From NCBI GenBank assembly GCA_003665825.1, contig QPFY01000021.1:1-64000 (forward strand): a stretch of 64,000 bases of DNA, in the 5' to 3' direction. Shown here in pieces: positions 7,202-36,540 of this stretch. The translations under genes and the position numbers were made by a program. Within the stretch, counting starts at the first letter, position 1. The number at the start of each line of letters is the position of its first letter. The DNA is from Microbotryum silenes-acaulis. Taxonomy: Eukaryota > Basidiomycota > Microbotryomycetes > Microbotryales > Microbotryaceae. The notes below the pieces were generated by a model. That model made no database searches and was not told where the DNA came from. It was given only the letters and a program-made list of their open reading frames with translations.

Positions 7202-7340
7202 TCCCGTTAACCCGTGGTCGCCCAGCGGTCGCCCGCCACGCGCCACAGGCAGCCTCGCCGCAACGCCCTCCGGCCTTCTGTGGCCACCTGCCGACCAGGA
7301 ACTCTGCTACCCTCTCGTGCTCGTCACTCAACTGTGATCC

Positions 7341-7380
7341 CTGGGGCCTTGGTAGCCCGGGCACGTGGCACGGTGGTACT
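7341..7380 (+). promoter_or_regulatory. Conserved upstream block with CACGTG E-box, FamX
   Basis: About 40 bp upstream of the start codon contains CACGTG at 7362-7367. The same block is kept in copy 2 (CACGTG at 17404-17409) and copy 3 (36454-36459), although sequence further upstream diverges. This makes it a candidate promoter element, probably for a bHLH-type factor. Confidence 0.45.
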
Positions 7381-7419
7381 CAAAGTGGTGCCCAACAGCA
7401 AAGTCCAATATCAGCCACG

Positions 7420-10089
7420 ATGTCTGCCACAACTCTCAATCTACCTATGCGCCACCTCTTTTCATGCACTCCACACACTTGGTTTCGAGCCACCTCCGCC
7501 CGGCGACGCGCCTGATTACTCAACCGCTCCGCGCATGCAGGCCAACGCTGGAACTTCGTTCGATTGCGCCGCACGTTTGGGAGGACTGAGATGGGCGAAT
7601 ACTCTTCTCCTGGCGACAGGATCGTCGACTCGTTCTTTGGTCTACTCGACTTACACCCATCGCTGCTCGAGCTCTTCGAAGCCAAGATCGCCGTCATTGA
7701 GGCGACGAGTTTGACCAGTGATGGCTGCATGCCTCGGATTACCGAAGAAGAGGTCCGAGATGCATTCACGTCCATTTTCGATGGCGGCCTAGGAGGTGCA
7801 ACGTGCGAGCTGCTCGACCATTATGCCTCGATCAGCGAAGCCAACTTCACGCTCACGACCAGTGGCTACTGGGTAACGCCAAGTAGCGTCCAAGGGCTAT
7901 CATACCGAACGCGGGGCGATGCCATCCTGGAAATTGGCCGTGGGGTTGACGACTCAGCAGTTGTTGTCTCGTCAATCGCGATCGAGTTCAAGCGGGGACC
8001 CGTGCATCACACGGCGGCCAAAGGGCCCCCTCCATCCGGATCCAACTCGGCGATCCCAGTGCTCGATCACGCGTCGCCGGTGCCGCTGCAGAATTTGGAG
8101 ACGCAAGTCTCGGTCGGTCCCGACGCCATAGCCACGAAGGTAAGACATGCGACGTGCTCATTTTCATTCGAATCGGCCCTGGAGCTTCCGTCTGATCTAA
8201 CTTTGTTCGCGTGTTTTTTTGCAGGCCATCATTCAGTGCGCTTCCCAAAGCTGCCGGTTCTTTCTCCTGTTCTCGGTGCCGTTTTTTCAGATCGGTGAAC
8301 TGGGTACGTTGCGCCTTCGGTTTCGAGCTGTGCATGGTGTAACGGTCACGCAGTGCCACTGATGCATGCAACTGCGCAATCTTGGGTTCTTCACACACAG
8401 TTGAACACCAAACGCCGACGCTGCAAGAGCAAGCGATGCGGCAGCTTCGACCGCGTAGCCTCCACCTCGACGGCACCAATGCCTGGCACGTCCAATCCAT
8501 CGACCCCCACCCCCCCTATCACGACCGAGGCGAGCGCCCCACCCACTGTTCGAAGACAGTATAGCCTGCTCCTCCAAGAGTTGGCGCGATGGGTCGAGCG
8601 CTATCCAGGCACCTCGCTCCAGCCCGCCGAGACCCTCGGCGTTGACGTCCCGACGCGGTCGTTCGTCGTGTCTTTCATTGCTCTGGCGTTCACAGCCGTG
8701 ATGAAGGTGCCCGACCCGGGCAAAGCTAGCGTCAAAGAATTGCTCGACGCCAACGCTAACACATCGAATCAGTCGCGACCTCGCGCCGACTCGGACTCGG
8801 ACCGTGAAGATCCCTCCTACGAGCCGGCATACAAAGCACCGAAAACGTCGGCCATCGGCATCGGTACTCGCTCTTCAAGGCGACTGGCAGGCGACCCCCC
8901 GCTAACTCAAGCCAGGGATTCGAATCGGCCCGTCACCCCGCCCGTCTCCGAAGAGGCCGGGTCCGACCTCTCCTCTGGCGCGCTCACTCCTGAGGCTCTC
9001 TGCTTCTCGTCCCCTCCTGCGTTGACGGACCGGAGTCCGACGACATCGCCGGTTTCCGGCTCGCTTCCTTCATCGAAATCGATCACAATCGCTCACGATC
9101 GCAATTTCGTGATCCAGGCGAGGGTGTCGAACGCCCACTGGTCCATGATGGTGCGTCACACATTTTGACCCATGCTGCTCCCGTCCCTGCACTCGTGGCT
9201 CCGCTCACCGAACGTGTCCTCTTGTGCTCTTTGCAGTCGTACACGGGCACGAGCCGCGTCAATCTGGTCGAAATCGACTTTGATATCGTCTCCTCCGTTC
9301 GTTCCGACTCGCCCCTTCCGTCCGTTCTGTCGTCGAACCCTTCCCCGGCCACCGACTTCATCCGGAGCCTCCATTTGTCTGATGCCGTTTTGCGATGGTT
9401 GACGGAAGACCCCAAGGATGAGCTCGAAGACGATCGGATCCCGCTGGAACTCTTCGATCACTTCGAGACCACGGCGGATCTTCGCCTGGAGAAGCAGGTT
9501 GGGACGGGAAGTACGGCTGACGGGTATCTTGCAAACGTGTTGCGAGTCAACCCACGTTGGTCCTCCCCGGCCGATCGCGAGGTCCCCCTTGTTGGCCACC
9601 CTACTCCAAACACGAAGTACTTTCTCAAGCTTGTGACGTGTAACTATGTTGGCTCGGTCGTCCGGGAGACGCTGTTTTATCAGCACGTTTTTCCCCACCT
9701 TCCCGATCGGCTCCAACAACATCTGCCACAATATCACGGCACGTACCGCGGTATCAACGGCAATGGGTACGCTATGGTGCTTGAGGACGTGGGGACCCAC
9801 ATGAATTACTCCGAGTTTTATGAACGGTCTGGCCAATGGCAGTAAGTCTTCGGGTCGCGGCAAGTTGTCGACGACACGATCTTCTTTCGCGATGAAATCC
9901 AGCTCAGCGTGATGCTGACACCTGTTCTTTCACTTCGTACTCGCCATGTGCAGGGAGATCGAGAAGGCTTTCGTTGAGCTTGGAATTGTTCACAACGATA
10001 TCCGCCAGGGGAACGTCTTGGTTCGACCCGACGACGGGGGCTTTTGCTTCGTCGACTGGGGACGATCTTATCTCAAACTTCGAGCGTGA
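7420..10089 (+). pseudogene. FamX nuclease-kinase gene, copy 1 (frameshifted)
   Basis: This has the same five-exon structure as the intact copy 3. The N-terminal exon carries the PD-(D/E)XK-like GDAILEIG...IAIEFKRG, and the last two exons carry the kinase-like region ending HNDIRQGN and FVDWG. Copy 1 has an extra T near 7483 and a missing G near 7592 relative to copies 2 and 3; these cancel but scramble about 35 codons. Two further single-base losses in the third exon (about 8430 and 8456) shift frame again for about 9 codons. It is unlikely to make the full native protein. Confidence 0.8.
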
Positions 10090-11045
10090 AGCTCCCTCTC
10101 TCCCCCCTCTACTCTATTATCTCTCTCTCTCTCTCGGCAATACTCGTGATCTCTTCACTTCCTCTCCCTTTCTCTCGGCAACGCTCGTAAGATTCACCCC
10201 CTCTTCTAGACCTGTCTCTCCTCTACTATAGCTTTATATATCATATGCACTTCCCTCAGTTTTGTCTGCAATGCGCAATGCTCAATATTTTGCTCTGTCC
10301 AGCTTCGTAGCTGGACTGCGGCCCCCAGACCCAAACGGGCGACAGCTTCTTACCGGTTCGGCTAGGACCATAGCAAGCATTGAGGCGCCTACAGACCACG
10401 TGATCTCCACTTAACAGTCATGGCTAACTTCTGATAATTTTCTTCAAAAAGTCCGAGATTCGGATTCGAACCGTTATTCTCATCAGCTTTCTGCCCTATA
10501 AAACTCAGGCTACTCATAGCGCATTGCTTCTTCAAGTTGTGGAAGGCCAAGGCCTCGGAAGCGCAAGTACCTGCTGAGTTTAAGTTGTCTGAAAATGAAA
10601 CAAGTGCACTGTTATGCAGCTTCTACGCACATAGTCAACTCTTCATCCGTCTCACTTCAAGTTTATAATCCATTACTCACAGCGCAGAGCACGGACAGTC
10701 GGACACAGTCTGGCATGACTAGCGCTTTAGCGTCAATGTCGATCAGTCCGAGCTCGAGTACTAGTAGTAGTAGCAAGTGTCGGCGGCGGCGGTCATTATA
10801 TATGGGCACCTCCAATATACCACTGCAGACGCCAAATTCTCCGCCAACTGCTTGCCAGCTACTCCTCTCTCGCGCTGTCCAACACGATGCTCCCAGGCTG
10901 GCAGGCTCGCACAGATGCAACGACTCACCAGCACCATTTGTCATTTGAGACGAGGGCCGGCCGGCGAGGGTCGGCCCAGCCTGGCCTAGCCAGCGTTTTG
11001 GGCCTGCTCAGCCTGGCACAACTTCGGCAGGCTTCGGCGCGCCTG
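10090..11045 (+). other. FamX 3' flank, no gene
   Basis: A CT-rich stretch follows the stop codon, with a short repeated tctctcggcaa.nctcgt motif (10130-10190). Next come conserved non-coding DNA and a 117-codon ORF (10595-10948) that is also found behind copy 3. The ORF contains a Ser-rich run and an AGT/TAG repeat and is probably not a real gene. TATATA-like sequence lies at 10797-10802. Confidence 0.5.
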
Positions 11046-11326
11046 TTGCGCTTTTCCCCTCCGATGTCTCGATCGGATGCCAATGGGGTTCTCGAGCGCG
11101 GGAAGGAAATTGCAACCTTCCTTGTGTATCTTTCGGTTTGTTTGGTTGTGTTGGGATGAGGAAGATGATTAATCTTCCTGGACGAGACCCTGGGATGATG
11201 CGTACACCCCAATTCCCGAGCCCCCGGTTCGGACAGGCGCCCTGGCGCCGGACGCGTACCACAGGTCACGCCCCCCACATTCACAACCAAAGAAACACAG
11301 CAAAAGATGCCTACGTTACAACGCAT
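11046..11326. other. Spacer between FamX copy 1 and the DIRS-like element
   Basis: No gene is seen. The stretch is the 3' side of the tyrosine recombinase gene and may hold the terminal repeat of the DIRS-like element, but I could not match it to a partner. Small perfect hairpins (aagat/atctt near 11163, gcgcc/ggcgc near 11239) are present. Confidence 0.4.
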
Positions 11327-12776
11327 TCAGGCTCTAACCGAATCGAGTGCAAGCTTGCCAGCCTTGCTCAGCACTTGGATCGCAATCTCCTTGTGCTGCC
11401 GCCAATACCTGTCAAAGGCATTCGATGACCAACGGCCAAGGTTTCGGATGTGATCCGTGTGTACACCTTCTCGAAGGTAAAACGTGGCCCCCACCGGACC
11501 TAAAGGAGTGGTTATTCAAGGGCGCCCTTCCGCTCGCCTCGAGAATGTGTTTGATTCGTCGCGAGAACGCCGAGGAGGTCAGCTGTCGATGACCTCCCTC
11601 GCGCGCCCGATATGAGAACAACCGCCCTGGTGGAGGGTCGTTTAGGCGGAAATGGTTATCGATGCCACCGACCGGGCAGAAGGGCTCGCCGTCTCGCGCC
11701 GAGACTATCAGCGTGCGGCCGACACGCCGACGCACCTTGTCAAACGGGAGGTCCAACTCGTATCGGAGAGGAGCTTCGCTCGTCGCATCGATCCGGCGTG
11801 CATTGGCCACCGCTAGATGCCGCTCGGCTATGAACTCTTCGTCCGCCGAATGCGCCGTAAACTCGCCCAATCTCGCCATCGCGAAGAACGCCGCACACGC
11901 TGCAGAAAACACGGCCGTATCGAACGGACTGCACTTGTCGATCCCCGCGGCCAGGCACCTGAGGTCGTCCAAAGTCGCCGCCAATTGCTCTGGTTTGGGG
12001 CCTGGAGCTGTGGCCGCAGCCGCAGCCAGTTGCATCGTCCACAGCTTCGGATCGTAGTTCATACGCAGCCCATGCGTCGTGTGCCAAAATTCTAGGGCGG
12101 TACGGAATCGGCGGAAGTGGCTGACGCTATAGGCTCCGACGCCATTTCCCGACAACGCGATCCGAGTGAGAAATCGCCTGACGACGTCAGGATGTGCGGG
12201 GAATCGATCCCTCCGGTCGACCAACTCGTCGTCACAGTACTCGAGGTATCGTAGAATGCACCTCGCGTACATCTCGTTCGACTCCGCCGTTCGACCTGCC
12301 GCAACCATCACCGCGTGCTCTGTCGCAGCCACTGCACACGCAAGGAGCGGACGTTGGACCGGAGTCGTCGGTGTGAGAACGAGGATTCGGTTGATACCTC
12401 GATGCGCCTTGGCGAACGCGGCGCACAGCCGCTCCTCCGGCGTGCAATTCGTGGATGAAGCCATCGGGGCCATCTCGTTCCCGTCTGCCTCAGGTAGGTA
12501 AACGACGATGTCCCCCGAATGGGAACTGCGCAACATCGGCAATCTTGGATTCGACGTCGACGTGAATCCCAAACAAGCCCCTGGACTACGATCTAGTTTC
12601 ACAATCGGAAGTGGCGCCGCAGCCGGTGCTCCATCGCGCAGCGCCGAACTCGACGCGTCGGCCCGACCGGTAAGCGCTCTTCCTGACTTGAACGCGCGCT
12701 CCCTAACGGCCATCGTCGGGTACGGAACGGCTCGTTGACGAAGCCTCGACGCGGCTCGTGAATCCTCGAAAGACAT
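11327..12776 (-). pseudogene. Tyrosine recombinase (YR) of DIRS-like element, one-base frameshift
   Basis: From the ATG at 12776 the frame encodes an N-terminal core-binding region (YARCILRYLEYCDDELVD...) and a catalytic domain. Visible catalytic-type residues are the Arg in MARLGEFT and the HSFRSGG box. After that the frame is lost in a run of five C on the plus strand (11480-11486 region). One base fewer restores a classic YR end, GRWSSNAFDRYW, with the presumed nucleophile Tyr, and a stop at 11327-11329. In DIRS-type retrotransposons this enzyme integrates the circular cDNA. Either the gene is dead or the homopolymer was misread. Confidence 0.85.
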
Positions 12777-13081
12777 CTGTATTTTCGAGACGGCGTGCGA
12801 CCCCCTCGTCCGACAAAGTGTGGGGGGAGGCCGAACGTGCCAAGCACGCGCCCGCGATCACGCGATTGTCTCGCGGCGGAGACGGGATAGGACCGGATAA
12901 CCGCACAGTCGCAACCGAGGCATAAGAGCGCGGCTCTGAGTCATGATAGCGTGACATTGACAAAACAGGACGCAAGAGGGTTCGACCTCACAAACAAGCA
13001 AAGGTACACGACTTCGCAGACACAGGGATACGCAACTCCGTACGAACGAGGCTCCACCTTCCACGAAGGGAGTCAGATATC

Positions 13082-15352
13082 TCAGCCTATCGTCCACAGG
13101 GGCTCTCCCGCCGCCAGCAGCAACTCGCGCCCCGCCGGAAACTTCGACAGTGGGTGCGCGATCATGAACGGGAACGGTTCGTACTGCCGCGGGCGGTCCG
13201 GCTGCCGGGACACGACGTCCGCGGGGTTCACCTTCGTCATCCGCGTGACTTCGGCCTTCCCGCGCCTCGGACCTCCTCTCCCCGCTTCGGCACCTGCACT
13301 GCTCTCTTCTCCTCCGACTACACACTCACAACCCTCTCGCCCCCGACTTTTACGTGATCCTCAACCAAGCTCTATTACGTGATCCCCAGCCTCAACACTA
13401 TTACGTGATCCTCGTGCCTCGCCTCCTCAAGCTCGCCACCTCGTCCCCGACTCCTCTGGTCTAGTTCCCCATTTCCGTAGCTTCTTTCTCTCCTTCCCTT
13501 CCGCAACTCGAATCTCGTCAAAGGTCACATCCTTGCACTCGTCCCTCGTCCTCGCCTCTTGTGAGAAGTCCCTAGAACATCTCTCAACTCGTCACTCGCC
13601 CTTGTCCTCGTCTCGAGCCCCTACGTCCGGCTCACCTCTCCTATCTTTGTCCTTTGTGATAGAATGCCCTTTCCTCCATCCAAGCACAACCCCGGTGTTG
13701 TCGCATTGTAGAACGAAATGTCTATCGTCTTTAGACATTCGTAACGCAGCCTCGGCCAGCGCCTCGACCGCCCACGCCTCCGCGTTCGTGATCGAGACCG
13801 AGTGTCGAGGCGGTGGCAGATCCGTCCACCCCTCGGGGAGGGCGAAGTACGCGGAGTATCCGTTGATGACGATGCCTAGTCCGTGCATACAGGCATCCGA
13901 CGCTAGCGCAAGCTTCGATGGGATCGGGAGGGCCTCGAACGACGTGGAGAATGGGCCTTCCGACAAGAGGAACCTTCTCCAGTATTCGAGTTGATCGTAC
14001 GTGCGACGGTCCAGGCGACGCGCCCGCGAAACCGCCTTCCGGTCCCCGTACGCGATACACTGTCTGTATAGACAGTTGAGATGGGTCCGTAATGCAGGTA
14101 GGATGTAGGCGACATACCCCAACGACCCAGTGACCGACTCGACCTCCGAGCGTTCCTTCGGATCGGCGTGGCTACCTTTCACCAAGGTGTCGATCTTGTC
14201 AATGTAGCGCAGCCGCTTCTGATCGGTGACCGTCGCGGTCATTAGATCCAAATCCCATTCAATCCCGACGTGGACAAATTGACGCGTCCACGTGAAGCCT
14301 TTCTGCTCCGCGAGGCGCCAGCCGAGGGATCGTACGAAATGAAGAATGGCTTCTTGCGATATGGCATCCGACGTTCGGACCGCGCAAACATCGTCAACCA
14401 TCTTGAAGATTGACACGCCGGGGAACTTCCATTCGACCAAGTCTTGGGCCAGGTCCGCAACGTTCCCAAAGACACCAGGAGTAGTCCTGCCACCGAAGCA
14501 TGGGACTCGTCGTACGAAGATGAGGCCGCGCCACAAGATGCACATGCTCGATCGCTGGTCCCATCGCAAAGGGAGTTGGTAGAACGCATCGGCGAAATCC
14601 CAACCGCAGACTTCCGCCGTCAAGGGAAGCTCGCGCAACTTGCGGTACAACATGGGCAAGGTCGTCCAACGGCAAGGGAAATCCGCAGATTTCGGGTCGT
14701 CATTAATGGAAACGAGTTCCGGACGGCTAGACGAACCACTCCGTTGCGACGGTCCATGCCCGCTCGTCGACGGATGATTCGCTTCGTCAGGGTCTGTAGT
14801 TCGATCGATCGGTTTCGCCTTCGGGTAAGACAGATTTTCGATCTGTCTCCACTTCGGCGGCATTCCGGGCGCTACTGACTTCGGCACATAGCTGATCGGA
14901 TTCGTGCGGAAAGGACCGATCGCGGCCTCGAGCTCGTCCTTGTCGTACGGGCCCGCGATGTACCCGAGATCGAGCATGCGCTCCATCTCGCCGTCCATGA
15001 CCAGTTGTTGCTCCTCACTGAGCGGTGCGTTCTTCGCGATGTGACGCTCCGACGGAGGGTCCTTGATGCCGAAATCAAAGCCCTCTCGGATCTGCTTCGG
15101 TATAGCGGCCAGGTACGGCGCGACGTGCGCGACCCTTGCGAGTGCCTTAATGTTGGCTTCGAACGCACCAGCATCGAGCGGCGTAACAATCTTGTACATC
15201 GCATCATGGAACGAGTCGACTTCGCGGGCCATGATTCGCATGCGAGCGGAAGTTTCGGGCACTGGCGAAGAGCCCGGCGCGGGCATTGAAGGCACGAACG
15301 GGACGTCTCCTTTGCTGCCAGCCGCGACAGGTTCGAGTGGAGCCCTGCCCAT
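13082..15352 (-). pseudogene. DIRS-like reverse transcriptase-RNase H, split by an insertion
   Basis: The RT shows WRQIENLSYPKA, then VCGWDFADAFYQLPL with the first catalytic Asp, then FKMVDDVCAV (a VDD version of the YxDD box). RNase H follows: [13 protein letters not shown], then [10 protein letters not shown], then [17 protein letters not shown]. At that point (about 13658) a 430-bp repeat interrupts the frame. On its far side (13228 down to a stop at 13082) the missing end resumes with NPADVVSRQPDRP. The polymerase would copy element RNA in the cytoplasm or nucleus. A reading frame of 586 codons remains open up to the insertion. Confidence 0.88.
13229..13658. repeat. 430-bp repeat inserted in RNase H; second copy at 59006-59443
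   Basis: In RNase H orientation the block starts CACAAAGG and ends GACGAAGGTG. A closely similar block lies in the opposite window orientation at 59006-59443, starting CACGAAGG and ending with the same bases. Both begin CAC and end GTG, but I see no good inverted repeat and no target duplication. It contains three TTACGTGATCC-type units (13349-13412). Confidence 0.75.
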
Positions 15353-17259: not shown

Positions 17260-20200
17260 GCCCACCCGTGCTCCCGTTGGTCGCCACTGGCAGCCTCCGG
17301 CCGCGACGCCCTCCGGCCTTCTCTGGCCACCTGCCGAATAGGAACTTTGCTTCCCTCGTGCTCGTCACTCAACTGTGATCCCCTGGGGCCTTGGTAGCCC
17401 GGGCACGTGGCACGGTGGTACTAAAAGCGACGTCAACAGCACGGTCTAATACCAGCTACAATGTCTGCTACAAGTCTCAATCCACCTATGCGCCACCTCT
17501 TTTCATGCACTCCACACACTTGGTTCGAGCCACCTCCGCCCGGCGACGCGCCTGATTACTCAACCGCTCCGCGTATGCAGGCCAACGCTGGAACTTCGTT
17601 CGATTGCGCCGCACGTTTGGGAGGACTGAGATGGGGCGAATACTCTTCTCCTGGCGACAGGATCGTCGACTCGTTCTTTGGTCTACTCGACTTACACCCA
17701 TCGCTGCTCGAGCTCTTCGAAGCCAAGATTGCCGTCATTGAGGCGATGGGTTCGACCAGGGCTGGCCGCAGGGCTCGGATTACCGAAGACGAGGTCCAAA
17801 ACACATTTGCCATTCTCTCTGACGGCCTAGGAGGTGCAACGTGCGAGCTGCTCGACCATTATGCCTCGATCAGCGAAGCCAACTTCACATCCACGACCAG
17901 TGGCTACTGGGTAAAGTTGCGCAGCGTCCAAGGGCTATCATACCGAACGCGGGGCGATGCCATCCTGGAAATTGGCCGTGGGGTTGACGACTCAGCAGTT
18001 GTTGTCTCGTCAATCGCGATCGAGTTCAAGCGGGGACCCGTGCATCACACGGCGGCCAAAGGGCCCCCTCCATCCGGATCCAACTCGGCGATCCCAGTGC
18101 TCGATCACGTGTCGCCGGTGCCGCTGCAGAATTTGGAGACGCAAGTCTCGGTCGGTCCCGACGCCATAGCCACGAAGGTAAGACATGCGACGTGCTCATT
18201 TTCATTCGAATCGGCCCTGGAGCTTCCGTCTGATCTAACTTTGTTCGCGTGTTTTTTGCAGGCCATCATTCAGTGCGCTTCCCAAAGCTGCCGGTTCTTT
18301 CTCCTGTTCTCGGTGCCGTTTTTTCAGATCGGTGAACTGGGTACGTTGCGCCTTCGGTTTCGAGCTGTGCATGGTGTAACGGTCACGCAGTGCCACTGAT
18401 GCATGCAACTGCGCAATCTTGGGTTCTTCACACACAGTTGAACACCAAACCGCCGACGCTGCAAGAGCAAGCGATGCGGCAGCTTCGACCGCGGTAGCCT
18501 CCACCTCGACGGCACCAATGCCTGGCACGTCCAATCCATCGACCCCCACCCCCCTATCACGACCGAGGCGAGCGCCCCACCCACTGTTCGAAGACAGTAT
18601 AGCCTGCTCCTCCAAGAGTTGGCGCGATGGGTCGAGCGCTATCCAGGCACCTCGCTCCAGCCCGCCGAGACCCTCGGCGTTGACGTCCCGACGCGGTCGT
18701 TCGTCGTGTCTTTCATTGCTCTGGCGTTCACAGCCGTGATGAAGGTGCCCGACCCGGGCAAAGCTAGCGTCAAAGAATTGCTCGACGCCAACGCTAACAC
18801 ATCGAATCAGTCGCGACCTCGCGCCGACTCGGACTCGGACCGTGAAGATCCCTCCTACGAGCCGGCATACAAAGCACCGAAAACGTCGGCCATCGGCATC
18901 GGTACTCGCTCTTCAAGGCGACTGGCAGGCGACCCCCCGCTAACTCAAGCCAGGGATTCGAATCGGCCCGTCACCCCGCCCGTCTCCGAAGAGGCCGGGT
19001 CCGACCTCTCCTCTGGCGCGCTCACTCCTGAGGCTCTCTGCTTCTCGTCCCCTCCTGCGTTGACGGACCGGAGTCCGACGACATCGCCGGTTTCCGGCTC
19101 GCTTCCTTCATCGAAATCGATCACAATCGCTCACGATCGCAATTTCGTGATCCAGGCGAGGGTGTCGAACGCCCACTGGTCCATGATGGTGCGTCACACA
19201 TTTTGACCATGCTGCTCCCGTCCCTGCACTCGTGGCTCCGCTCACCGAACGTGTCCTCTTGTGCTCTTTGCAGTCGTACACGGGCACGAGCCGCGTCAAT
19301 CTGGTCGAAATCGACTTTGATATCGTCTCCTCCGTTCGTTCCGACTCGCCCCTTCCGTCCGTTCTGTCGTCGAACCCTTCCCCGGCCACCGACTTCATCC
19401 GGAGCCTCCATTTGTCTGATGCCGTTTTGCGATGGTTGACGGAAGACCCCAAGGATGAGCTCGAAGACGATCGGATCCCGCTGGAACTCTTCGATCACTT
19501 CGAGACCACGGCGGATCTTCGCCTGGAGAAGCAGGTTGGGACGGGAAGTACGGCTGACGGGTATCTTGCAAACGTGTTGCGAGTCAACCCACGTTGGTCC
19601 TCCCCGGCCGATCGCGAGGTCCCCCTTGTTGGCCACCCTACTCCAAACACGAAGTACTTTCTCAAGCTTGTGACGTGTAACTATGTTGGCTCGGTCGTCC
19701 GGGAGACGCTGTTTTATCAGCACGTTTTTCCCCACCTTCCCGATCGGCTCCAACAACATCTGCCACAATATCACGGCACGTACCGCGGTATCAACGGCAA
19801 TGGGTACGCTATGGTGCTTGAGGACGTGGGGACCCACATGAATTACTCCGAGTTTTATGAACGGTCTGGCCAATGGCAGTAAGTCTTCGGGTCGCGGCAA
19901 GTTGTCGACGACACGATCTTCTTTCGCGATGAAATCCAGCTCAGCGTGATGCTGACACCTGTTCTTTCACTTCGTACTCGCCATGTGCAGGGAGATCGAG
20001 AAGGCTTTCGTTGAGCTTGGAATTGTTCACAACGATATCCGCCAGGGGAACGTCTTGGTTCGACCCGACGACGGGGGCTTTTGCTTCGTCGACTGGGGAC
20101 GATCTTATCTCAAACTTCGAGCGTGAAGCTCCCTCTCTCCCCCCCCTCTACTCTATTATCTCTCTCTCTCTCTCGGCAATACTCGTGATCTCTTCACTTC

Positions 20201-20594
20201 CTCTCCCTTTCTCTCGGCAACGCTCGTAAGATTCACCCCCTCTTCTAGACCTGTCTCTCCTCTACTATAGCTTTATATATCATATGCACTTCCCTCAGTT
20301 TTGTCTGCAATGCGCAATGCTCAATATTTTGCTCTGTCCAGCTTCGTAGCTGGACTGCGGCCCCCAGACCCAAACGGGCGACAGCTTCTTACCGGTTCGG
20401 CTAGGACCATAGCAAGCATTGAGGCGCCTACAGACCACGTGATCTCCACTTAGCAGTCATGGCCAACTTCTGATAATTTTCTTCAAAAAGTCCGAGATTC
20501 GGATTCGAACTGTTATTCTCATCAGCTTTCTGCCCTATAAAACTCAGGCTACTCATAGCGAATTGCTTCTTGTGGAAGGCTTCGGAAGCGCAAG
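17260..20594 (+). mobile_element. FamX repeat unit, copy 2
   Basis: Similarity to copy 1 begins around 17270 (gttggtcgcca...ggcagcct) and ends at cggaagcgcaag (20583-20594), where copies 1 and 3 continue for about 450 bp more. The left edge lies next to the DIRS-like gag start and the right edge is about 120 bp from the CACTA element. A GC-rich palindromic patch (17236-17262) lies at the left edge. Confidence 0.8.
17461..20126 (+). pseudogene. FamX nuclease-kinase gene, copy 2 (one-base frameshift)
   Basis: Exon 1 is open from the ATG at 17461 and reads the PD-(D/E)XK-like region in frame. It differs from copies 1 and 3 in a short patch (NTFAILSDGLGG instead of the AFTSIF version). The third exon has six C instead of seven after CCCCCA near 18550, which shifts the frame for the rest of the exon. 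The kinase exons downstream are otherwise intact. The copy is broken by a single homopolymer change. Confidence 0.8.
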
Positions 20595-21959: not shown

Positions 21960-24900
21960 TAAATGTGAGTACGCACCTCCCGCTTGAAGATCATAGGGGC
22001 TACCTGGCCGCACAACTGGCGTGCCACAAATTGCGCAACTCGTAATACATCGCTGATGCCTGGACCCTGCTTCAGCTTGTCACTTTGCCGTCCACATAGA
22101 GACAGTCCTTGCGCATCCGACTCCCCGTTCGCACTCGGAGCTTGGCTTGAGATCAACGTAGATGAAGTTTGCGTTCGATCCCCCATGGCTTGCATCAATG
22201 GACTCTGTGTCTCTGGCACGCGCCTTGTCTCCACCCGCTTGCGTTGTTGATGCTTCCTCAGGTTCGGTAAACTGATGGGATACGAGAAGCGAGGAAATCG
22301 CGAACAAGCCATTTGCAAGGCAGCATCCGCACACACATCTGCGAAAAGTCACAAAGAAAGGGTCAGCTAATTTGATGGGCTGCAGGAGGGTTAATGAACA
22401 GGCTTCTTACAATGATTCACTGCTTCGTACGGTAGACGATGAGCCTTACTTGCAGCACGCTTGACTGTTTGATTGAGCCTCTCCATGGCAAAGCACCAAG
22501 TCATGGCAGGTGGTCCATGCCATTCAATGAAGTCTGCTATATGAAGCACGGCGTGGATTGAGTGCGGTAGATTATTCAAGCGAGCTGACTTCCCGCAGTA
22601 GTATAACCTGTGCCGGGGCGAACAGTGGGGGCTCAGTGAAGATTCGGTTCAGATGAATACCATGATTAGGGAAACATGGTATGGAACTTACGATTCAAAC
22701 TCAGTATACCAATTGGCGATGTCACGTCGGAGCGCCCCATTTTTAGCTACATCCTCCTTCTTGATTGTCATTGCCATACAATCTTTAACCCATCTCCGGA
22801 GCGCCAAGAAGTGGGTGAAATATTTGGCAGGCAGTCGATCATGAAGAACACAGGGGCCGATGTAGAGAATCCAATTTGACCAATCCTCTGCTGTCATTGA
22901 CCCAGTCTGCAGATGAATGTTGGGCATCTTGCGAGCAAACAAGTGTGGTATAGTCTTTGAGGCGCTGACAATCTCTTGTCCGATGACCTCCCAAGTTTTG
23001 TTTGGTATCACCCAGTCGGGAGGCTCCGATCCAAGCAAGTTGTCTAGCGCGGCAGAGGAGACTGTCGTGATTGCACCGCTCCCGGGTCCCGCCTGACCTT
23101 GCGTTACGGTGCTCCTCTGAGTTTGCAATGCCCGCTTGTTGGGTCCCCTTGCTTTCAGACCCGTTGGTTCACTGTGCCACATGTTGAAGAGTCTCCGAGC
23201 AACGTTTTCGAAGACAGCGTGCATGAAATCCGATGCTCCGTCTTGATGAAGCGAGAATCCAGGAAGGTGCGCTGCCGAGCTCAGCTTGCCAAGACCGACT
23301 GTTGGCTTCTTTGAAGAGGCGGCTTGGCGAATGGTTGCGTCCGAACGCATGGGAAGGTCTAAAGGGTCCAGATCGAATCGGTGGGTATGCGAGGAGTCGA
23401 GAGGCATCTTTAGTGGATAGTAATTGTGATTGTGGCCAGCAGCGCAAGGAACGCCTTGGATAAGGCAAATCCGGCAAGGCCATTTGGCAGTGGGGCCCTT
23501 GAAACCGAGCATCTTTGAAAGAGCAGGTCCATCACCGCCAATCATGTGAATGAACCATCGCTGCAACACCATCCTCTGCAAAAGTCGTATTACTCATCAG
23601 CATTCATAGATTACACTTCAGGTCAAGCTGACTTCAGCGACTGGTACACACCTCCGTCACGCCGTCGAAGACCATGTGGCCATTCTTAGCCGAGGCACGA
23701 GCATCTTCATAAAGCGGATGAAGGAAGGAATCGAGATCTTTGGGTCCCTTGGGGCCCGGTATGATGCCGACAACCATGAGGTGTTTCTTCTGGTAACGTA
23801 TCTCCGGGGGTAGATTGTAGTTGATCATCATGATTGGCCAGCATTCGCTCTGGGTCTTATTGAAGAGCTGGATGCCATCGGTAAACAGCCCAAATGCAAC
23901 GTCAAGATCACCCTCGTAGTACTTCACGTTGATGGTAGTGGCGGTCGGCTGGGATTCATCCGTGGCAGATGGATTCGTCCAAGAGATATACTGATCTAGC
24001 TTCTGGCGATATCGATCACCATCAAAGATGTCCACGACCTCTTGAGGATCTCGCTTGCGTTCAAAGTCGGATCTATACCGCATTGAGGAAGCATACGCGT
24101 GACCGCGCATGTAGATGCGCAGATAGACGCTTGGCGAAAGGTAGAGAAAGGTCCTCCGAGGATTGTCGTTTCGATCTAGCTTCGGCTCGTTGCACATTGG
24201 ACAACGCGTCAATAATTCTCTTGGCCCGGTGAACGCGACACACGTTCTGATACAGCAGGGTATCCGAACAGGTTCGAGACCTGAAACAATGAGCTATCAG
24301 CAAGTGTACCATCCTCAAGACGAAGAACGACAGCTGTCAGAGTTCAACAGGCAGCTAATGCACTCACCCGTCAAAGCGAACACTCGAGCACGTATTTTCT
24401 TCAAACTAGGCCTACTCCCCAGTATCTCCCAAATCTCGCTCGCCTGGCGCGTCATGTTGTACATATGCCGAAATGAAAAGTCGAATAACGTGTCCATATC
24501 GTAGTACGGAAGATCTTTGTCTAGGGATGGTAATGCTAGGAACCAGTTCAGCGGCGCTTCTCTCTCCCAAGCACTGCGACACTCCTAGTGCTCACCCGAC
24601 TGGATCTCTTGACGGATTTGCTCCTCTGCCCCTGCACGCTCCGGAGAGCTGAATGCATGAGAAACGCCGCGTCGGCTTTGCTCATTCTCGGTACTGATCG
24701 GTTGATTAGTTCCCCATAGTGTTCCGGCGGCCGGTGGGTCGTTGTCGTTGTCGTCGTCGTCGTCGTCGTCGTCGTCGAATGGGAGCGAGCTAGAGCTGGA
24801 GCGGTCCTCGTATTCCAGGTCAGGAGACACCATTCCCCAATCAAATGCCGCGTCAAACTGTTGTGTCTCGCTAAAATCTTCTTCGTCCAATCCTAGCGCT

Positions 24901-29940: not shown

Positions 29941-29949
29941 CGGTCCGGC

Positions 29950-30180: not shown

Positions 30181-30192
30181 GGTTAACGGGAG
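30181..30192 (+). repeat. 12-bp target site duplication, LINE copy B, left
   Basis: ggttaacgggag is repeated exactly at 32762-32773 on the other side of the LINE. Confidence 0.9.
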
Positions 30193-32761
30193 GAAAGAGA
30201 GAGAGAGAGAGAGATCATCATTCCAAGACCTTATCGCGCTATAGCGCATGTGGTCCTCAGAAAAATTTCCAAACAAGTCAAAGAGGGAGTATTTAAGAAG
30301 GGTTAAAAAATTGGGAGTTTGTGGTTTTGGAAGTTTTGTATTGGATTTGAAAAATCCAGAAAAGTTGGTCGGGTGAAAACCTCCGCGCACCCCAAAAGCG
30401 CCGAGGTTTGCCTTTTTTTGGTTTTTGTATCAAGCCTGATCAGATTTCACATATTCGATTATCTACGCAAAGTCAATGTTTCTTGAAAAGGGGGGTTATA
30501 CTTATGTAAAGTCAAAGCCACTGGATCTATGTAGCCCTCACATTCACAGAACCACCAAAATGTGAGCCCCAACCACCCTTCCTATTCCATAGTTTTGAAA
30601 AATAGGCACAATCGATAAGAGAGAGAGAGAGGGAGAGTGAAGGAGTTTCAGGCAAGAGGACTCCCAAGCCCGATACCCATCAGAAGGAAAGTCACATCAT
30701 CCGTTCCAGAGAAGCTCGCCATCTGGCAGACGTCGAAGTCGGAATCTGAGATGCGGAATTTGAGATGCGAGTGGACCTCGCGAGCAAGCCAGTACGGGGT
30801 TGGTAATGGGAAAATCAGCTTCCAGTGAACATCCTTTTCGACCGCTGTTGCCCATTGACTGTTCAGCCAGAGCCAGAACTGTTGCTTCTGCTCCCTTGTA
30901 AGATCTGTTGGCTATTTTAGTCGGACACCGTCGTCCAGCGGGGGGTAGCGGACCTCGTTGATGAAGCGGCGGAGGGCTTTGACCGTATAGGGGCGGGTCG
31001 CTCCAAGGAACGAGTAGGTGCAGGGTCGCAGGAAGTAGGGGTCGCCAATGGTGGATCGGACGGTGGTGTGCTGAGGCAACAAAAGCCCAATTGGAGAGCA
31101 AGCACTCACATCTGCCCAAAGCTTTCCCAATAGCGAGTCTGGTTGCAGTCCTAGATGCACGGGCTCCCCTGTCGTCAGGCGCCGCCGGTAAAGATCGATG
31201 ATTGCCCCGAACTTTTTGAGCCGCTTTCGCACGTCGTCCGACAGGCCTTGTGGGTGTAGCGAAGGCAAAGTAGGTGGGACCAATAGCACCTCGGTTGACT
31301 GAAGGAGCTCTGGGAACACATGGGGCAGCGTCAGTCGAGCAACCTTAATTGCCTTCGTCCACCGCGCGTGGGGTGCGCGGCGAGGCGAGGCAATCAATGT
31401 CGACCAAATCGTCGTTTCTTCCGGATAAGTGTGCTCTCAGCTGAGTCGTGCGAGTGCAGCCCAGATCGGCTCGAAGCCATGAGCGACGCAGTCCCAGAAT
31501 CGGATCGCCATAGAGCAGACGATGTCCTCGATGCTTAGTAGGCCCAATCCCCCAAGGTCGCGACGAAGAAAGACTGCATCCTTTGCCACCGGTCGGAAAG
31601 AGTCGTTTTGCCACACAAAGGAGCTGAGAGCTTGTTCGAAAGCGTCGATGAACGTGACGGGCGGGATGTTGAAAGACAGCAAGCGGATGATCCTCGAAGT
31701 GACATACGAGTTGGCGTACATCGCTCGGGCTTGTGGGGGAACATGTCGAGCCGCTGCCGCCTCCAGTCGAGCCTTTGCTCGGTTGAGTGTCGTGCTCCAG
31801 AAGAGCGAGAGATTGCCGTCGATGAAAACCGGATAGCCAGCCCAAGTCATGCACTCCGACCAGCGCGCACAAGTAGCGATCCCGCCAGCCCGTTCTGTCG
31901 CAGAAATGTTCTCGAGTGGTAACTGATGATGACCACGACTCAGTCCAATGAACAGGGACGAGAACAGAGTGGCCAGAGACTAAGGGACAGACTCGCGGAA
32001 GGCTAGAAAGTGAAGCGAAAAGCTAATAAGGAGAGAGATTAGAGACTAGTAAAGTAGGGAGATTGAGCGACTAAGGAGTGAATGACACGCCGCTAGGCTC
32101 AATCCCAAGTACCATAATAGGAACAATAATCAGATGAAGGACGGGACAACCCATATGACCATATAAGAATGACACGTTCGTCTTGGGTCCAACCCAAGCC
32201 GAGAGGAAGAGCGGTCGTCTTGGCCGTGTTCGAGCGTCTGTTCGTAGCCAAGCGCCAGTTGACGGCTAGACCAGTCAGGAGGTCGAGTGCTGCCAGTGAC
32301 GAGACGAGCACGATCGCATCGTCCGCAAAGGCGAGATGGGTGAGAATTGTAGCCCGGGTGGGGAGAATGACTGCACTCAGATCAAGAGCAATCTCTTTTC
32401 TCACCAGAGCATCGAGGTAGGGCTGGAAACACACGTTCCAGATGGGACAACTCACGGGATCTCCTTGTCCGAGGTCACAAAGCATGCGCACCGCCTCAGT
32501 TCGGAGGTATCCATTGATGATGTAACGAAGCGACACCGATGTGTAGATGACGCTGAGGAAGCCAATGAACCGTTCTGGCGCTCCTATCGCTCGAAAAACG
32601 CTTGTAATCCAGTCATGATCAACCAGGTCATACGCGCTTTCCTGGTCAAGCGACAGGAGAGCCGAGTCAGCAAGGTCAAGTGAGCGAATCTGTTCGAGTA
32701 GCAGGGACAAGGCTTTGCCGCCAAGTCGAAAGCAGAGATCGAGTTCGAAATCCGAATGCTT
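30193..32761 (-). mobile_element. LINE retrotransposon, copy B, 5'-truncated, with 12-bp duplication
   Basis: Read on the minus strand the element begins at FELDLCFRLGGKALSLLLEQ and carries RT motifs DQESAYDLVDHDW, GQGDPVSCPIWN and LAFADDAIVL. It continues through the post-RT region seen in copy A and ends in a CT tail (plus-strand GAGAGA at 30197-30213). Perfect 12-bp duplications flank it. ORF1, the endonuclease and the N-terminal RT are missing, as expected from incomplete reverse transcription. A 279-bp solo LTR at 31896-32174 interrupts it. Confidence 0.9.
31896..32174. repeat. Solo LTR in LINE copy B, 5-bp duplication cgttc
   Basis: The insertion is absent from the matching place in LINE copy A (about 5498). 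It starts TGTCGCAGAA and ends GAATGACA (TG...CA). It is flanked by cgttc at 31891-31895 and 32175-32179. Size, ends and 5-bp duplication are those of an LTR-retrotransposon solo LTR. Both ends read TGTC inward, so orientation cannot be set. Confidence 0.9.
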
Positions 32762-33223
32762 GGTTAACGGGAGCCAACAGGCGCGCCGAAGCTTGCCGAA
32801 GCGGCGCCAGGCTGGGCAGGACCCTAAAACGCTGGCTAGGCCGGGCTGCGCCGACCCTCGCCGGCCGGCCCTCGTCTCAAATGACAAATGGTGCTGGTGA
32901 GTCGTTGCATCTGTGCGAGCCTGCCAGCCTGGGAGTATCGTGCTAGACAGTGCGAGAAAATAAATGGCGAGAAGTTGGTGGGAGAATTTGGCATCTGGGA
33001 TTTGGGAGGTGCCCCTATATAATGACCGCCGCCGCCGACACTTGCTACTACTACTAGTACTCGAGCTCGGACTGATCGACATTGACGCTAAAGCGCTAGT
33101 CATGCCAGACTGTGTCCGACTGTCCGTGCTCTGCGCTGTGAGTAATGGATTATAAACTTGAAGTGAGACGGATGAAGAGTTGACTATGTGCGTAGAAGCT
33201 GCATAACAGTGCACTTGTTTCAT
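32099..33223 (-). other. Chimeric ORF: FamX 3' flank fused to LINE reverse transcriptase
   Basis: A 374-codon frame starts in the FamX 3' flank, crosses the LINE 5' junction at 32761/32762 and continues through the RT boxes into the solo LTR. The N-terminal 150 or so residues are low-complexity translation of non-coding DNA. The fusion is an accident of insertion and I do not regard it as a gene. Confidence 0.6.
32762..32773 (+). repeat. 12-bp target site duplication, LINE copy B, right
   Basis: ggttaacgggag is identical to 30181-30192. Confidence 0.9.
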
Positions 33224-36200
33224 TTTCAGACAACTTAAACTCAGCAGGTGCTTGCGCTTCCGAGGCCTTGGCCTTCCACAACTTGAAGAAGCAATGCGCT
33301 ATGAGTAGCCTGAGTTTTATAGGGCAGAAAGCTGATGAGAATAACAGTTCGAATCCGAATCACGGACTTTTTGAAGAAAATTATCAGAAGTTAGCCATGA
33401 CTGTTAAGTGGAGATCACGTGGTCTGTAGGCGCCTCAATGCTTGCTATGGTCCTAGCCGAACCGGTAAGAAGCTGTCGCCCGTTTGGGTCTGGGGGCCGC
33501 AGTCCAGCTACGAAGCTGGACAGAGCAAAATATTGAGCATTGCGCATTGCAGACAAAACTGAGGGAAGTGCATATGATATATAAAGCTATAGTAGAGGAG
33601 AGACAGGTCTAGAAGAGGGGGTGAATCTTACGAGCGTTGCCGAGAGAAAGGGAGAGGAAGTGAAGAGATCACGAGTATTGCCGAGAGAGAGAGAGAGATA
33701 ATAGAGTAGAGGGGGGGAGAGAGGGAGCTTCACGCTCGAAGTTTGAGATAAGATCGTCCCCAGTCGACGAAGCAAAAGCCCCCGTCGTCGGGTCGAACCA
33801 AGACGTTCCCCTGGCGGATATCGTTGTGAACAATTCCAAGCTCAACGAAAGCCTTCTCGATCTCCCTGCACATGGCGAGTACGAAGTGAAAGAACAGGTG
33901 TGTCAGCATCACGCTGAGCTGGATTTCATCGCGAAAGAAGATCGTGTCGTCGACAACTTGCCGCGACCCGAAGACTTACTGCCATTGGCCAGACCGTTCA
34001 TAAAACTCGGAGTAATTCATGTGGGTCCCCACGTCCTCAAGCACCATAGCGTACCCATTGCCGTTGATACCGCGGTACGTGCCGTGATATTGTGGCAGAT
34101 GTTGTTGGAGCCGATCGGGAAGGTGGGGAAAAACGTGCTGATAAAACAGCGTCTCCCGGACGACCGAGCCAACATAGTTACACGTCACAAGCTTGAGAAA
34201 GTACTTCGTGTTTGGAGTAGGGTGGCCAACAAGGGGGACCTCGCGATCGGCCGGGGAGGACCAACGTGGGTTGACTCGCAACACGTTTGCAAGATACCCG
34301 TCGGCCGTACTTCCCGTCCCAACCTGCTTCTCCAGGCGAAGATCCGCCGTGGTCTCGAAGTGATCGAAGAGTTCCAGCGGGATCCGATCGTCTTCGAGCT
34401 CATCCTTGGGGTCTTCCGTCAACCATCGCAAAACGGCATCAGACAAATGGAGGCTCCGGATGAAGTCGGTGGCCGGGGAAGGGTTCGACGACAGAACGGA
34501 CGGAAGGGGCGAGTCGGAACGAACGGAGGAGACGATATCAAAGTCGATTTCGACCAGATTGACGCGGCTCGTGCCCGTGTACGACTGCAAAGAGCACAAG
34601 AGGACACGTTCGGTGAGCGGAGCCACGAGTGCAGGGACGGGAGCAGCATGGTCAAAATGTGTGACGCACCATCATGGACCAGTGGGCGTTCGACACCCTC
34701 GCCTGGATCACGAAATTGCGATCGTGAGCGATTGTGATCGATTTCGATGAAGGAAGCGAGCCGGAAACCGGCGATGTCGTCGGACTCCGGTCCGTCAACG
34801 CAGGAGGGGACGAGAAGCAGAGAGCCTCAGGAGTGAGCGCGCCAGAGGAGAGGTCGGACCCGGCCTCTTCGGAGACGGGCGGGGTGACGGGCCGATTCGA
34901 ATCCCTGGCTTGAGTTAGCGGGGGGTCGCCTGCCAGTCGCCTTGAAGAGCGAGTACCGATGCCGATGGCCGACGTTTTCGGTGCTTTGTATGCCGGCTCG
35001 TAGGAGGGATCTTCACGGTCCGAGTCCGAGTCGGCGCGAGGTCGCGACTGATTCGATGTGTTAGCGTTGGCGTCGAGCAATTCTTTGACGCTAGCTTTGC
35101 CCGGGTCGGGCACCTTCATCACGGCTGTGAACGCCAGAGCAATGAAAGACACGACGAACGACCGCGTCGGGACGTCAACGCCGAGGGTCTCGGCGGGCTG
35201 GAGCGAGGTGCCTGGATAGCGCTCGACCCATCGCGCCAACTCTTGGAGGAGCAGGCTATACTGTCTTCGAACAGTGGGTGGGGCGCTCGCCTCGGTCGTG
35301 ATAGGGGGGGTGGGGGTCGATGGATTGGACGTGCCAGGCATTGGTGCCGTCGAGGTGGAGGCTACCGCGGTCGAAGCTGCCGCATCGCTTGCTCTTGCAG
35401 CGTCGGCGGTTTGGTGTTCAACTGTGTGTGAAGAACCCAAGATTGCGCAGTTGCATGCATCAGTGGCACTGCGTGACCGTTACACCATGCACAGCTCGAA
35501 ACCGAAAGCGCAACGTACCCAGTTCACCGATCTGAAAAAACGGCACCGAGAACAGGAGAAAGAACCGGCAGCCTTGGGAAGCGCACTGAATGATGGCCTG
35601 CAAAAAAACACGCGAACAAAGTTAGATCAGACGGAAGCTCCAGGGCCGATTCGAATGAAAATGAGCACGTCGCATGTCTTACCTTCGTGGCTATGGCGTC
35701 GGGACCGACCGAGACTTGCGTCTCCAAATTCTGCAGCGGCACCGGCGACACGTGATCGAGCACTGGGATCGCCGAGTTGGATCCGGATGGAGGGGGCCCT
35801 TTGGCCGCCGTGTGATGCACGGGTCCCCGCTTGAACTCGATCGCGATTGACGAGACAACAACTGCTGAGTCGTCAACCCCACGGCCAATTTCCAGGATGG
35901 CATCGCCCCGCGTTCGGTATGATAGCCCTTGGACGCTACTTGGCGTTACCCAGTAGCCACTGGTCGTGAGCGTGAAGTTGGCTTCGCTGATCGAGGCATA
36001 ATGGTCGAGCAGCTCGCACGTTGCACCTTCTAGGCCGCCAGCGAAAATGGACGTAAATGCATCTCGGACCTCGTCTTCGGTAATCCGAGCCCTGCGGCCA
36101 GCCCTGGTCGAACCCATCGCCTCAATGACGGCAATCTTGGCTTCGAAGAGCTCGAGCAGCGATGGGTGTAAGTCGAGTAGACCAAAGAACGAGTCGACGA

Positions 36201-36540
36201 TCCTGTCGCCAGGAGAAGAGTATTCGCCCCATCTCAGTCCTCCCAAACGTGCGGCGCAATCGAACGCAGTTCCAGCGTTGGCCTGCATGCGCGGAGCGGT
36301 TGAGTAATCAGGCGCGTCGCCGGGCGGAGGTGGCTTGAACCAAGTGTGTGGAGTGCATGAAAAGAGGTGGCGCATAGGTGGATTGAGATTTGTGGCAGAC
36401 ATTGTAGCTGGTATTGGACCGTGCTGTTGACGTCGCTTTTAGTACCACCGTGCCACGTGCCCAGGCTACCAAGGCCCCAGGGGATCACAGTTAAATGACG
36501 AGCACGAGAGGGTAGCAAAGTAAAGCAAAGTTCCTGTTCG
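32774..36540 (-). mobile_element. FamX repeat unit, copy 3 (inverted)
   Basis: This is the reverse-complement relative of 7213-11045 and 17260-20594. On its 3' side similarity with copy 1 runs to caacaggcgcg (32775). On its 5' side similarity fades near 36540 (the ctgccgaacaggaactttgc region). The LINE has inserted directly at its 3' edge. Confidence 0.8.
33730..36402 (-). CDS. Predicted PD-(D/E)XK nuclease-kinase fusion protein (FamX), intact copy
   Basis: Five exons close exactly in frame: 36402-35683, 35597-35519, 35421-34670, 34584-33980, 33865-33730 (2292 nt, 763 residues), all introns GT...AG. Residues about 155-195 contain GDAILEIG (D167) and IAIEFKRG (E189, K191), the spacing and hydrophobic setting of a PD-(D/E)XK nuclease core. 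Residues 260-515 are a Ser/Thr/Pro-rich linker with a helical patch (QYSLLLQELARWVERYPG). Residues 598-763 are a minimal protein-kinase-like fold: glycine loop QVGTGSTADGYLA, Lys648 in YFLKLV, Glu661 in RETLF, catalytic loop HNDIRQGN (D734, N739) and FVDWG (D753) in place of DFG, ending 8 residues later, so most of the C-lobe is missing. Nuclease plus kinase-like combinations are known in Crinkler-type effector families; assignment here is by motif only. Confidence 0.72.

What the first reader, a model, noticed from the sequence alone, without database searches (positions are those of the whole stretch)
7213..36540. FamX: three near-identical intron-containing copies of a nuclease-kinase gene in under 30 kb
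The copies at 7213-11045 (+), 17260-20594 (+) and 32774-36540 (-) share exons, introns, an upstream E-box block and long 3' flanks. The protein (763 residues) joins a PD-(D/E)XK-like motif set (D167, E189, K191) to a minimal kinase-like fold (K648, E661, D734, N739, D753). Retained introns rule out copying through spliced RNA. Gene duplication together with non-coding DNA in both orientations points to a mobile, selfish or effector-like unit that spreads as DNA. Crinkler-type families combine such domains, but a self-amplifying genomic unit of this kind would be new to me.
Basis: partly seen in the sequence, partly recalled or inferred. Interest (0 to 1): 0.88.

Follow-up and report, generated by a model that had tools for sequence, protein, structure and literature searches.

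The report
Chromosome-end gene family, possible fungal killer
Three copies of one gene near a contig end of an anther-smut fungus belong to a family seen only in that genus, which sits mostly near chromosome ends, appears to be copied as ordinary DNA, and looks like a toxin-type nuclease fused to a kinase, as in known fungal spore-killer genes, but no activity has been shown.

Summary
The three copies are real: 97.4-97.9% identical, five exons, four introns, an E-box 57-58 nt upstream. Only the third is intact in the window. The genome is, by its best protein matches, a Microbotryum (anther smut). FamX has at least 22 non-redundant loci there; three capped searches of 5.8 billion proteins found relatives only in four Microbotryum species. 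Of 18 loci on large contigs, 11 lie within 50 kb of a contig end (1.6 expected); five lie beyond 100 kb. FamX is not a unit with ends of its own: ends are ragged, and the one shared junction is best explained by a LINE inserted between two head-to-tail copies, with a LINE-free junction kept elsewhere. Spread is best explained by tandem and chromosome-end duplication plus gene conversion. The C-terminal kinase has profile support and purifying selection. The nuclease rests on conserved D-ExK residues alone; two structure predictions failed. A hypervariable segment before the nuclease-like core carries allele types shared between species, while the rest is homogenised among the three copies. The best reading is a SPOK/Crinkler-like nuclease-kinase conflict protein. 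It is not shown to be a SPOK or a Crinkler: no sequence match; SPOK Cys cluster absent; no CRN header seen.

The parts
7241..11048 (+). FamX copy c1 (gene about 7420-10088; frame broken in this contig, open in contigs C46/C35)
17282..20594 (+). FamX copy c2 (gene about 17461-20126; frame-shifted in exon 3 in both C21 and C46)
32775..36549 (-). FamX copy c3, the only intact copy in the window (763 aa)
35683..36402 (-). c3 exon 1 (residues 1-240; N-terminal domain and most of the nuclease-like domain)
35519..35597 (-). c3 exon 2 (AIIQ helix of the nuclease-like domain, Q244)
34670..35421 (-). c3 exon 3 (linker)
33980..34584 (-). c3 exon 4 (kinase N-lobe: G608, K648, E661)
33730..33865 (-). c3 exon 5 (catalytic loop HND..N and DWG: D734, N739, D753)
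36016..36135 (-). hypervariable segment, residues 90-129
35830..35904 (-). nuclease-like motif D167...E189-x-K191
36454..36459 (-). E-box CACGTG at -57 of c3 ATG (c1: 7362-7367; c2: 17404-17409)
5290..7200 (+). LINE fragment on the 5' side of c1, its 5' end abutting a hAT element; the CTCCCGTTAACC that follows (7201-7212) matches the target-site repeat
30181..32773 (-). LINE on the 3' side of c3, with CTCCCGTTAACC on both sides (32762-32773 and 30181-30192); marks an inferred old copy-to-copy junction

Best explanation
FamX is a gene family seen only in Microbotryum and concentrated near chromosome ends. It encodes a nuclease-like domain fused to a C-terminal APH/eukaryotic-like kinase. Copies arise as DNA by head-to-tail tandem duplication, then by chromosome-end segmental duplication and gene conversion, not by a transposase or RNA of their own (best supported by the anatomy; the order of events is inferred). 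The protein most likely acts as a genetic-conflict protein like SPOK spore killers or Crinkler-type nuclease-kinases. In this reading the nuclease-like domain would damage DNA, the kinase would restrain or protect, and the hypervariable segment before the nuclease core would set which variants recognise each other (all inferred).
For: Copying route: ragged ends; a LINE at a FamX-FamX junction, with a LINE-free junction in C10 that matches the FamX 5' flank over 37 of 38 nt with one 7-nt gap (score 54; best of 500 shuffles 29); 11 of 18 loci within 50 kb of contig ends vs 1.6 expected, 0 of 20,000 draws; a FamX relic in a 96-98.6% identical block near five contig ends. Kinase: APH in 9 of 11 annotated members at E <= 1, best 1.8e-5; median dN/dS 0.26 over 78 pairs of B paralogs in exon 4. 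Nuclease-like: over 21 non-redundant loci with that exon, D in 21, E in 19 and K in 20. Conflict: exon 1 dN/dS 1.26, 2.28 and 1.13 among c1, c2 and c3, next to 2.4 kb that is 99.3-100% identical; a hypervariable segment in the same place in two subfamilies, 0 and 1 of 10,000 shuffles; its allele types shared with other species. SPOK analogy: same domain order; D-to-K span 24 vs 21 residues; a conserved Q 53 vs 54 residues after K.
Against: No sequence or profile match to SPOK, Crinkler or any nuclease family was found. Both structure models failed, pLDDT 33 and 37, and Foldseek's best match had E 0.36. The SPOK Cys cluster is in 0 of 19 annotated proteins, no coiled coil was seen, and FamX has four coding introns where the SPOK intron is in the 5' UTR. 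E189 or K191 is lost in several relatives (P0002, P0007, P0009, P0012, P0017). The other seven A-type pairs have exon 1 dN/dS 0.51-1.14 and B pairs a median of 0.64, so ratios above 1 are confined to a few pairs with few changes and could come from conversion with divergent donors. B paralogs are also variable in the exon-3 linker. Five of 18 loci lie more than 100 kb from a contig end. No expression, killing or segregation data were available.
Confidence: 0.5

Rival explanations
1. FamX is a Crinkler-like effector that acts inside the host plant; its position near chromosome ends and fast N-terminus reflect a plant arms race.
For: REase+kinase is about one sixth of CR C-termini in a survey cited in PMC5289972 (passages). 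Microbotryum is a plant pathogen. Fast-evolving families near chromosome ends are common among effectors (background knowledge).
Against: No signal peptide or LxLFLAK/ubiquitin-like header is evident in the N-terminus by eye (no predictor was run). No Crinkler profile hit. Among c1-c3 the differences are concentrated in the first exon and absent or nearly so from the kinase, though B paralogs also vary in the exon-3 linker.
Confidence: 0.2
2. FamX is a kinase with a non-catalytic N-terminal domain, working in chromosome-end or transposon control or another housekeeping role.
For: The kinase is the only domain with profile support and exon 4 is under stronger purifying selection than exon 1. 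The nuclease fold is unproven. K191 or E189 is lost in some relatives.
Against: D, E and K are kept in 21, 19 and 20 of 21 non-redundant own-genome loci. Hypervariability and allele types shared between species are unusual for housekeeping genes.
Confidence: 0.2
3. FamX is itself a mobile DNA unit with fixed ends.
For: Copies with non-coding flanks in both orientations; c1, c3 and C10 share one 3' break.
Against: Ragged ends elsewhere. The shared break fits a tandem junction with a LINE insertion and a LINE-free version. No transposase frame was seen in the shared unit, and no target-site repeats of FamX itself were evident by eye at its ends.
Confidence: 0.04

Closest known systems
SPOK spore-killer family (Podospora, Fusarium; Vogan et al. 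2019 PMC6660238)
   Same: Order nuclease-like then C-terminal eukaryotic-like kinase; similar length (SPOK length recalled, about 766 residues); D...ExK with a similar span and a conserved Q about 53-54 residues later; multi-copy, gene conversion, pairwise dN/dS 0.66-0.98 between SPOKs, pseudogene copies.
   Different: No detectable sequence match; basidiomycete; four coding introns (SPOK has one intron, in the 5' UTR); SPOK Cys cluster absent and coiled coil not seen; clustered near chromosome ends rather than in a Starship element; no killing shown.
Crinkler/RHS-type (CR) effectors with REase+kinase C-termini (Zhang et al. 2016, known here only through PMC5289972 and PMC12693581)
   Same: REase-like domain coupled to a kinase domain.
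   Different: No secretion or translocation header evident by eye; no profile hit; seen in one genus only in our searches.
APH/RIO/Bud32-type small kinases
   Same: Catalytic loop HND..N and DWG, APH profile (best E 1.8e-5).
   Different: Fused to a 590-residue N-terminal part with no known family.
wtf spore-killer genes of fission yeast
   Same: Multi-copy, rapidly evolving (from background knowledge and paper listings).
   Different: Unrelated proteins; no nuclease or kinase (background knowledge).

Membership tests
SPOK | Sequence homology to SPOK proteins | tested here: not met
   Three searches of 5.8 billion proteins returned only Microbotryum; seeds are 5-residue words and candidates were capped, so remote homology is not excluded. 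No SPOK sequence was held for a direct profile comparison.
SPOK | PD-(D/E)XK core with catalytic lysine | tested here: inconclusive
   D167/E189/K191 in 21, 19 and 20 of 21 non-redundant loci; no profile or structure support.
SPOK | C-terminal kinase with catalytic Asp | tested here: met
   APH profile and HND..N/DWG motifs.
SPOK | Cys cluster C-x3-C-x13-C-x5-H-x7-H upstream of kinase | tested here: not met
   0 of 19 annotated proteins match the pattern or a looser form of it; pattern.
SPOK | N-terminal coiled coil | tested here: inconclusive
   Not seen by eye in the alignment; no coiled-coil program was run.
SPOK | Killing and resistance shown genetically | not testable with these tools
   No crosses or expression available.
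Crinkler (CRN/CR) | N-terminal header for secretion/translocation (Ubl/LxLFLAK) | tested here: inconclusive
   Not seen in the N-terminal 100 residues by eye; no predictor was run, and the review says atypical N-termini exist.
Crinkler (CRN/CR) | REase+kinase C-terminus | tested here: inconclusive
   Kinase met, REase by motif only.
Self-mobile DNA element | Fixed ends with target-site duplications | tested here: not met
   Ragged ends; the shared break fits a tandem junction plus LINE.
Self-mobile DNA element | Empty sites in other strains | not testable with these tools
   No second genome of this species was held.
Chromosome-end multigene family | Enrichment near chromosome ends | tested here: met
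   11 of 18 within 50 kb, 1.6 expected. Of 10 contigs with a (TTAGGG)4 array at a verified contig end, 9 carry a FamX gene or pseudogene 2-192 kb from it and the tenth, C15, carries a relic.

The most novel reading that the evidence does not exclude
FamX is a nuclease-kinase toxin-antidote (spore-killer-like) family in a basidiomycete, amplified near chromosome ends, whose specificity lies in a hypervariable segment with alleles kept across species. Inverted kinase-exon relics near chromosome ends might feed RNA interference as suppressors.
Probability: 0.27. Interest if true: 0.88.

Novelty: new variant of a known kind. Interest (0 to 1): 0.6.

Why it matters
If the conflict reading holds, nuclease-kinase killers evolved or persisted outside the Ascomycota, in a genus that is a model for mating-type chromosome evolution. 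Allele types shared between species in one short segment would give a direct handle on how such proteins tell self from non-self. Even if not, it is a family enriched near chromosome ends with a sharp contrast between a homogenised body and a diversified segment. In the listings of 9 library searches I saw no paper on this family; only openly licensed papers are held, and I opened passages or sections of six.

Tried and rejected
Structure: AlphaFold2 on P0001 with 11 sequences (pLDDT 33) and on P0014 with 15 sequences (pLDDT 37); Foldseek of the second model against PDB gave no match at E <= 0.001. Profile searches found no nuclease: Pfam (exons; 11 and 15 annotated proteins), NCBIfam and PADLOC (4 of the 19 annotated proteins each), PDB profiles (best E 0.029, casein kinase II catalytic loop). 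PF04313 HSDR_N has no match in this genome at E <= 10.

RIP: the RIP-like index of PMC10502011 (passages; I read its 'TGCA' as TCGA) is negative in all 26 FamX stretches, -0.24 to -0.52, but also in all seven transposon stretches of the window that I measured, -0.03 to -0.40, so it does not set FamX apart.

LINE transduction: rejected because FamX keeps its introns and the LINE family is spread over many contigs away from their ends. Retrocopying: rejected because introns are kept.

In the motif table the exon-5 letters of c1 and c2 come from a wrong alignment piece; one search shows them identical to c3. That table also holds four redundant stretches (C35 x2, C46 x2), which I dropped from the counts. 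The coarse open-exon test passes c2, which is frame-shifted; I dropped c2 from the count of open loci. Of the genome matches only the best 30 of each were fetched as loci; weaker matches are not in any count.

After the filing check I mended these points: motif counts now leave out redundant stretches; the identity range beside the hypervariable segment is 99.3-100%; the exon-3 variability, the other dN/dS pairs and the loci far from ends are told; the tandem-junction reading is called best explained rather than shown, with a new comparison.
Full report
What is there. The window is contig C21:1-64000 of a 29.85-Mb genome of 88 contigs. Its closest relatives are Microbotryum proteins, so it is most likely an anther-smut fungus; the best identities (91% for c3; at most about 87% for locus translations) suggest a species not among the four with annotated proteins. 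The three FamX copies are real and pairwise 97.4-97.9% identical. Each has five exons and four GT-AG introns. Only c3 encodes the intact 763-residue protein in the window. c1 carries several one-base indels in this contig but is open in contigs C46 and C35, which match C21 there with 1 substitution and 25-26 one-base indels over 5.6 kb. I therefore treat C21, C46 and C35 as one locus assembled more than once, and do not count C46 and C35 as extra copies.

How many, and where. Exon searches of the genome gave 82 kinase-exon and 32 N-terminal-exon matches; the best 30 of each were fetched and merged to 26 stretches, 22 after dropping the four on C35 and C46. There is an A group (c1-c3, C1, C10) and a more diverged B group of paralogs: kinase exon mostly 71-75% identical to the query, N-terminal exon mostly 47-52%. 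Of the 22 loci, 11 have all five exons open in the assembled letters after removing c2, or 12 if c1 is read from C46/C35. For placement I used 18 loci on contigs of at least 200 kb, counting the C21 trio once. Eleven lie within 50 kb of a contig end against 1.6 expected, 0 of 20,000 random draws over the contigs that carry FamX; 13 lie within 100 kb and five farther, one of them mid-contig on C1. Loci on smaller contigs were left out. Of 12 contigs with a (TTAGGG)4 array, 10 have it at a verified end; 9 of those 10 carry a FamX gene or pseudogene 2-192 kb from it and the tenth, C15, a relic. The window's own contig end has no telomere, so its position at a chromosome end is likely but not shown.

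How it spread. In c1 coordinates the copies break at 7128 (C10), 7241 (c2), 7283 (c3) and 7299 (C1) on the 5' side, and at 10425 (C10), 10567 (c2), 10715 (C1) and 11048 (c3) on the 3' side. C10 resumes homology up to 11048 after a gap, so c1, c3 and C10 share one 3' break. offer an explanation. A LINE sits downstream of c3, with CTCCCGTTAACC on both sides, and a copy of it sits upstream of c1, followed by the same sequence and then the FamX 5' flank. The 3' flank of C10 keeps a LINE-free version: a FamX 3' end running into a stretch that matches C10's own FamX 5' flank over 37 of 38 nt with one 7-nt gap (score 54; best of 500 shuffles 29). The simplest reading is that copies were once head to tail, with a unit of about 3.8 kb, and that the LINE marks the junction; this is an inference from short sequences. 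The LINE copies beside FamX are 98-99% identical; the next genomic copy is 93%, and the family is spread over many contigs. Separately, a FamX relic lies in a block of at least about 2.8 kb that is 96-98.6% identical near five contig ends. Tandem and chromosome-end duplication explains retained introns, flanks and both orientations.

The protein. The C-terminal part is a kinase: Pfam APH matches 9 of 11 annotated members at E <= 1, best 1.8e-5, P0001 itself just under the curated cut-off, and catalytic residues K648, E661, D734, N739 and D753 are kept in the full-length annotated members. It is under purifying selection, median dN/dS 0.26 over 78 pairs of B-group paralogs in exon 4, against 0.64 over 91 pairs in exon 1. 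The nuclease claim is weaker. Over 21 non-redundant own-genome loci with that exon, D167 is kept in 21, E189 in 19 and K191 in 20; Q244 is found in 17 of the 20 that could be read, and in all 11 proteins of alignment A1. Some relatives have lost E or K (P0002, P0007, P0009, P0012, P0017). No profile search found a nuclease family, and two structure models failed. The predicted secondary structure order, helix-strand-strand-strand, fits a PD-(D/E)XK core but at very low confidence.

A hypervariable segment. Copies c1 (read from C46), c2 and c3 are 99.3-100% identical over alignment columns 600-3000 but only 90-98% over the first 600. Exon 1 changes among these three are mostly amino-acid-changing (23.5:6.5, 13:2 and 14.5:4.5 non-synonymous to synonymous; dN/dS 1.26, 2.28, 1.13), whereas exon 4 has no non-synonymous and 0-1 synonymous differences; the other seven A pairs have exon 1 ratios of 0.51-1.14. 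Amino-acid diversity peaks at residues 90-129 in the A group (5 sequences, 0 of 10,000 shuffles) and at the homologous 105-144 in the B group (12 sequences, 1 of 10,000), just before the nuclease-like core. In the B group the exon-3 linker is a second variable stretch, window ratios up to 1.57. Two allele types of the exon-1 segment occur, one in c1 and C10 and one in c2 and c3; the first also occurs in M. silenes-dioicae (P0001, P0015), the second in M. silenes-dioicae (P0014) and M. saponariae (P0002). The exon-1 tree joins c1 and C10 with P0001 and P0015 (98/97), and, with weaker support, c3 with P0014 (88/88), while in the kinase tree the three window copies are identical. All four combinations of two neighbouring cassettes occur in c1, C10, c3 and c2, so they recombine. 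Gene conversion from divergent donors can produce clustered changes, so I do not read the ratios alone as proof of selection.

Comparison with known systems. SPOK3 has folded domains at about 40-170, 210-400 and 490-700, a PD-(D/E)XK motif at 219-240, a QxxxY at 294-298, a Cys/His cluster and a kinase with D667 (PMC6660238, section 17; section 19; other passages). Published work ties killing to the nuclease domain and resistance to the kinase (passages of PMC9972908 and PMC12693581). FamX shares the order, roughly the length (SPOK length recalled), and the spacing of D to K (24 vs 21) and of K to Q (53 vs 54); it does not have the Y of QxxxY. It lacks the Cys cluster (0 of 19), no coiled coil was seen by eye, it has four coding introns, and it shows no sequence match to SPOK in three searches. 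The Crinkler class also pairs REase and kinase, in about one sixth of C-termini according to a review (PMC5289972 passages); the primary paper was not held. FamX shows no translocation header by eye. So it works like, at most, a SPOK- or CR-type nuclease-kinase; membership in either is not established.

Verdict. An ordinary copying mechanism, an unusual family. The mobile-unit interpretation is not supported. The conflict-protein reading is the best single explanation, at about even odds, with the killing step entirely inferred.

Noticed in passing
L075-L079 (C8R, C13L, C15L, C16L, C18R); L031, L030: Inverted, hairpin-forming copies of a FamX kinase-exon segment lie in a block shared by five contig ends and beside the C3, C11 and C13/C8L loci. 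M. lychnidis-dioicae has Dicer, Argonaute and RdRP (PMC4469406 passages), so small-RNA suppression is conceivable; untested.
   Followed up: partly
window 1-37000: Contigs C46 and C35 repeat the left end of C21 almost exactly; of the 25-26 one-base indels in c1, 16-17 lie in runs of three or more. Likely redundant assembly and lower base quality at contig ends.
   Followed up: yes
1546-5286 and 45518-49367: Two hAT transposons (Pfam Dimer_Tnp_hAT in the first), about 97-99.7% identical over shared stretches, with inverted ends of about 24 bp as judged from matches on C1, where a third copy's end lies upstream of FamX.
   Followed up: partly
P0015, P0004: Annotated M. silenes-dioicae P0015 joins an A-type N-terminus to a B-type kinase, and M. 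saponariae P0004 is B-type with an A-type C-terminal end, suggesting A/B recombination, or gene-model errors (read by eye).
   Followed up: no
11412-15352: Tyrosine-recombinase-like and reverse-transcriptase-like frames between c1 and c2, perhaps a DIRS-type element; labels recalled, no Pfam hit.
   Followed up: no
22688-24212: tnp2-type transposase fragment (Pfam Transposase_21, E 1.1e-14).
   Followed up: no
38627-40780: Fatty acid desaturase gene beyond the repeats (Pfam FA_desaturase).
   Followed up: no
C5:78623-80920; P0002, P0007: Some long copies have lost the putative catalytic K191 or E189; P0002 and P0007 keep K648, E661, D734, N739 and D753, while C5 has also lost K648. Candidate protection-only variants, or decay.
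   Followed up: no
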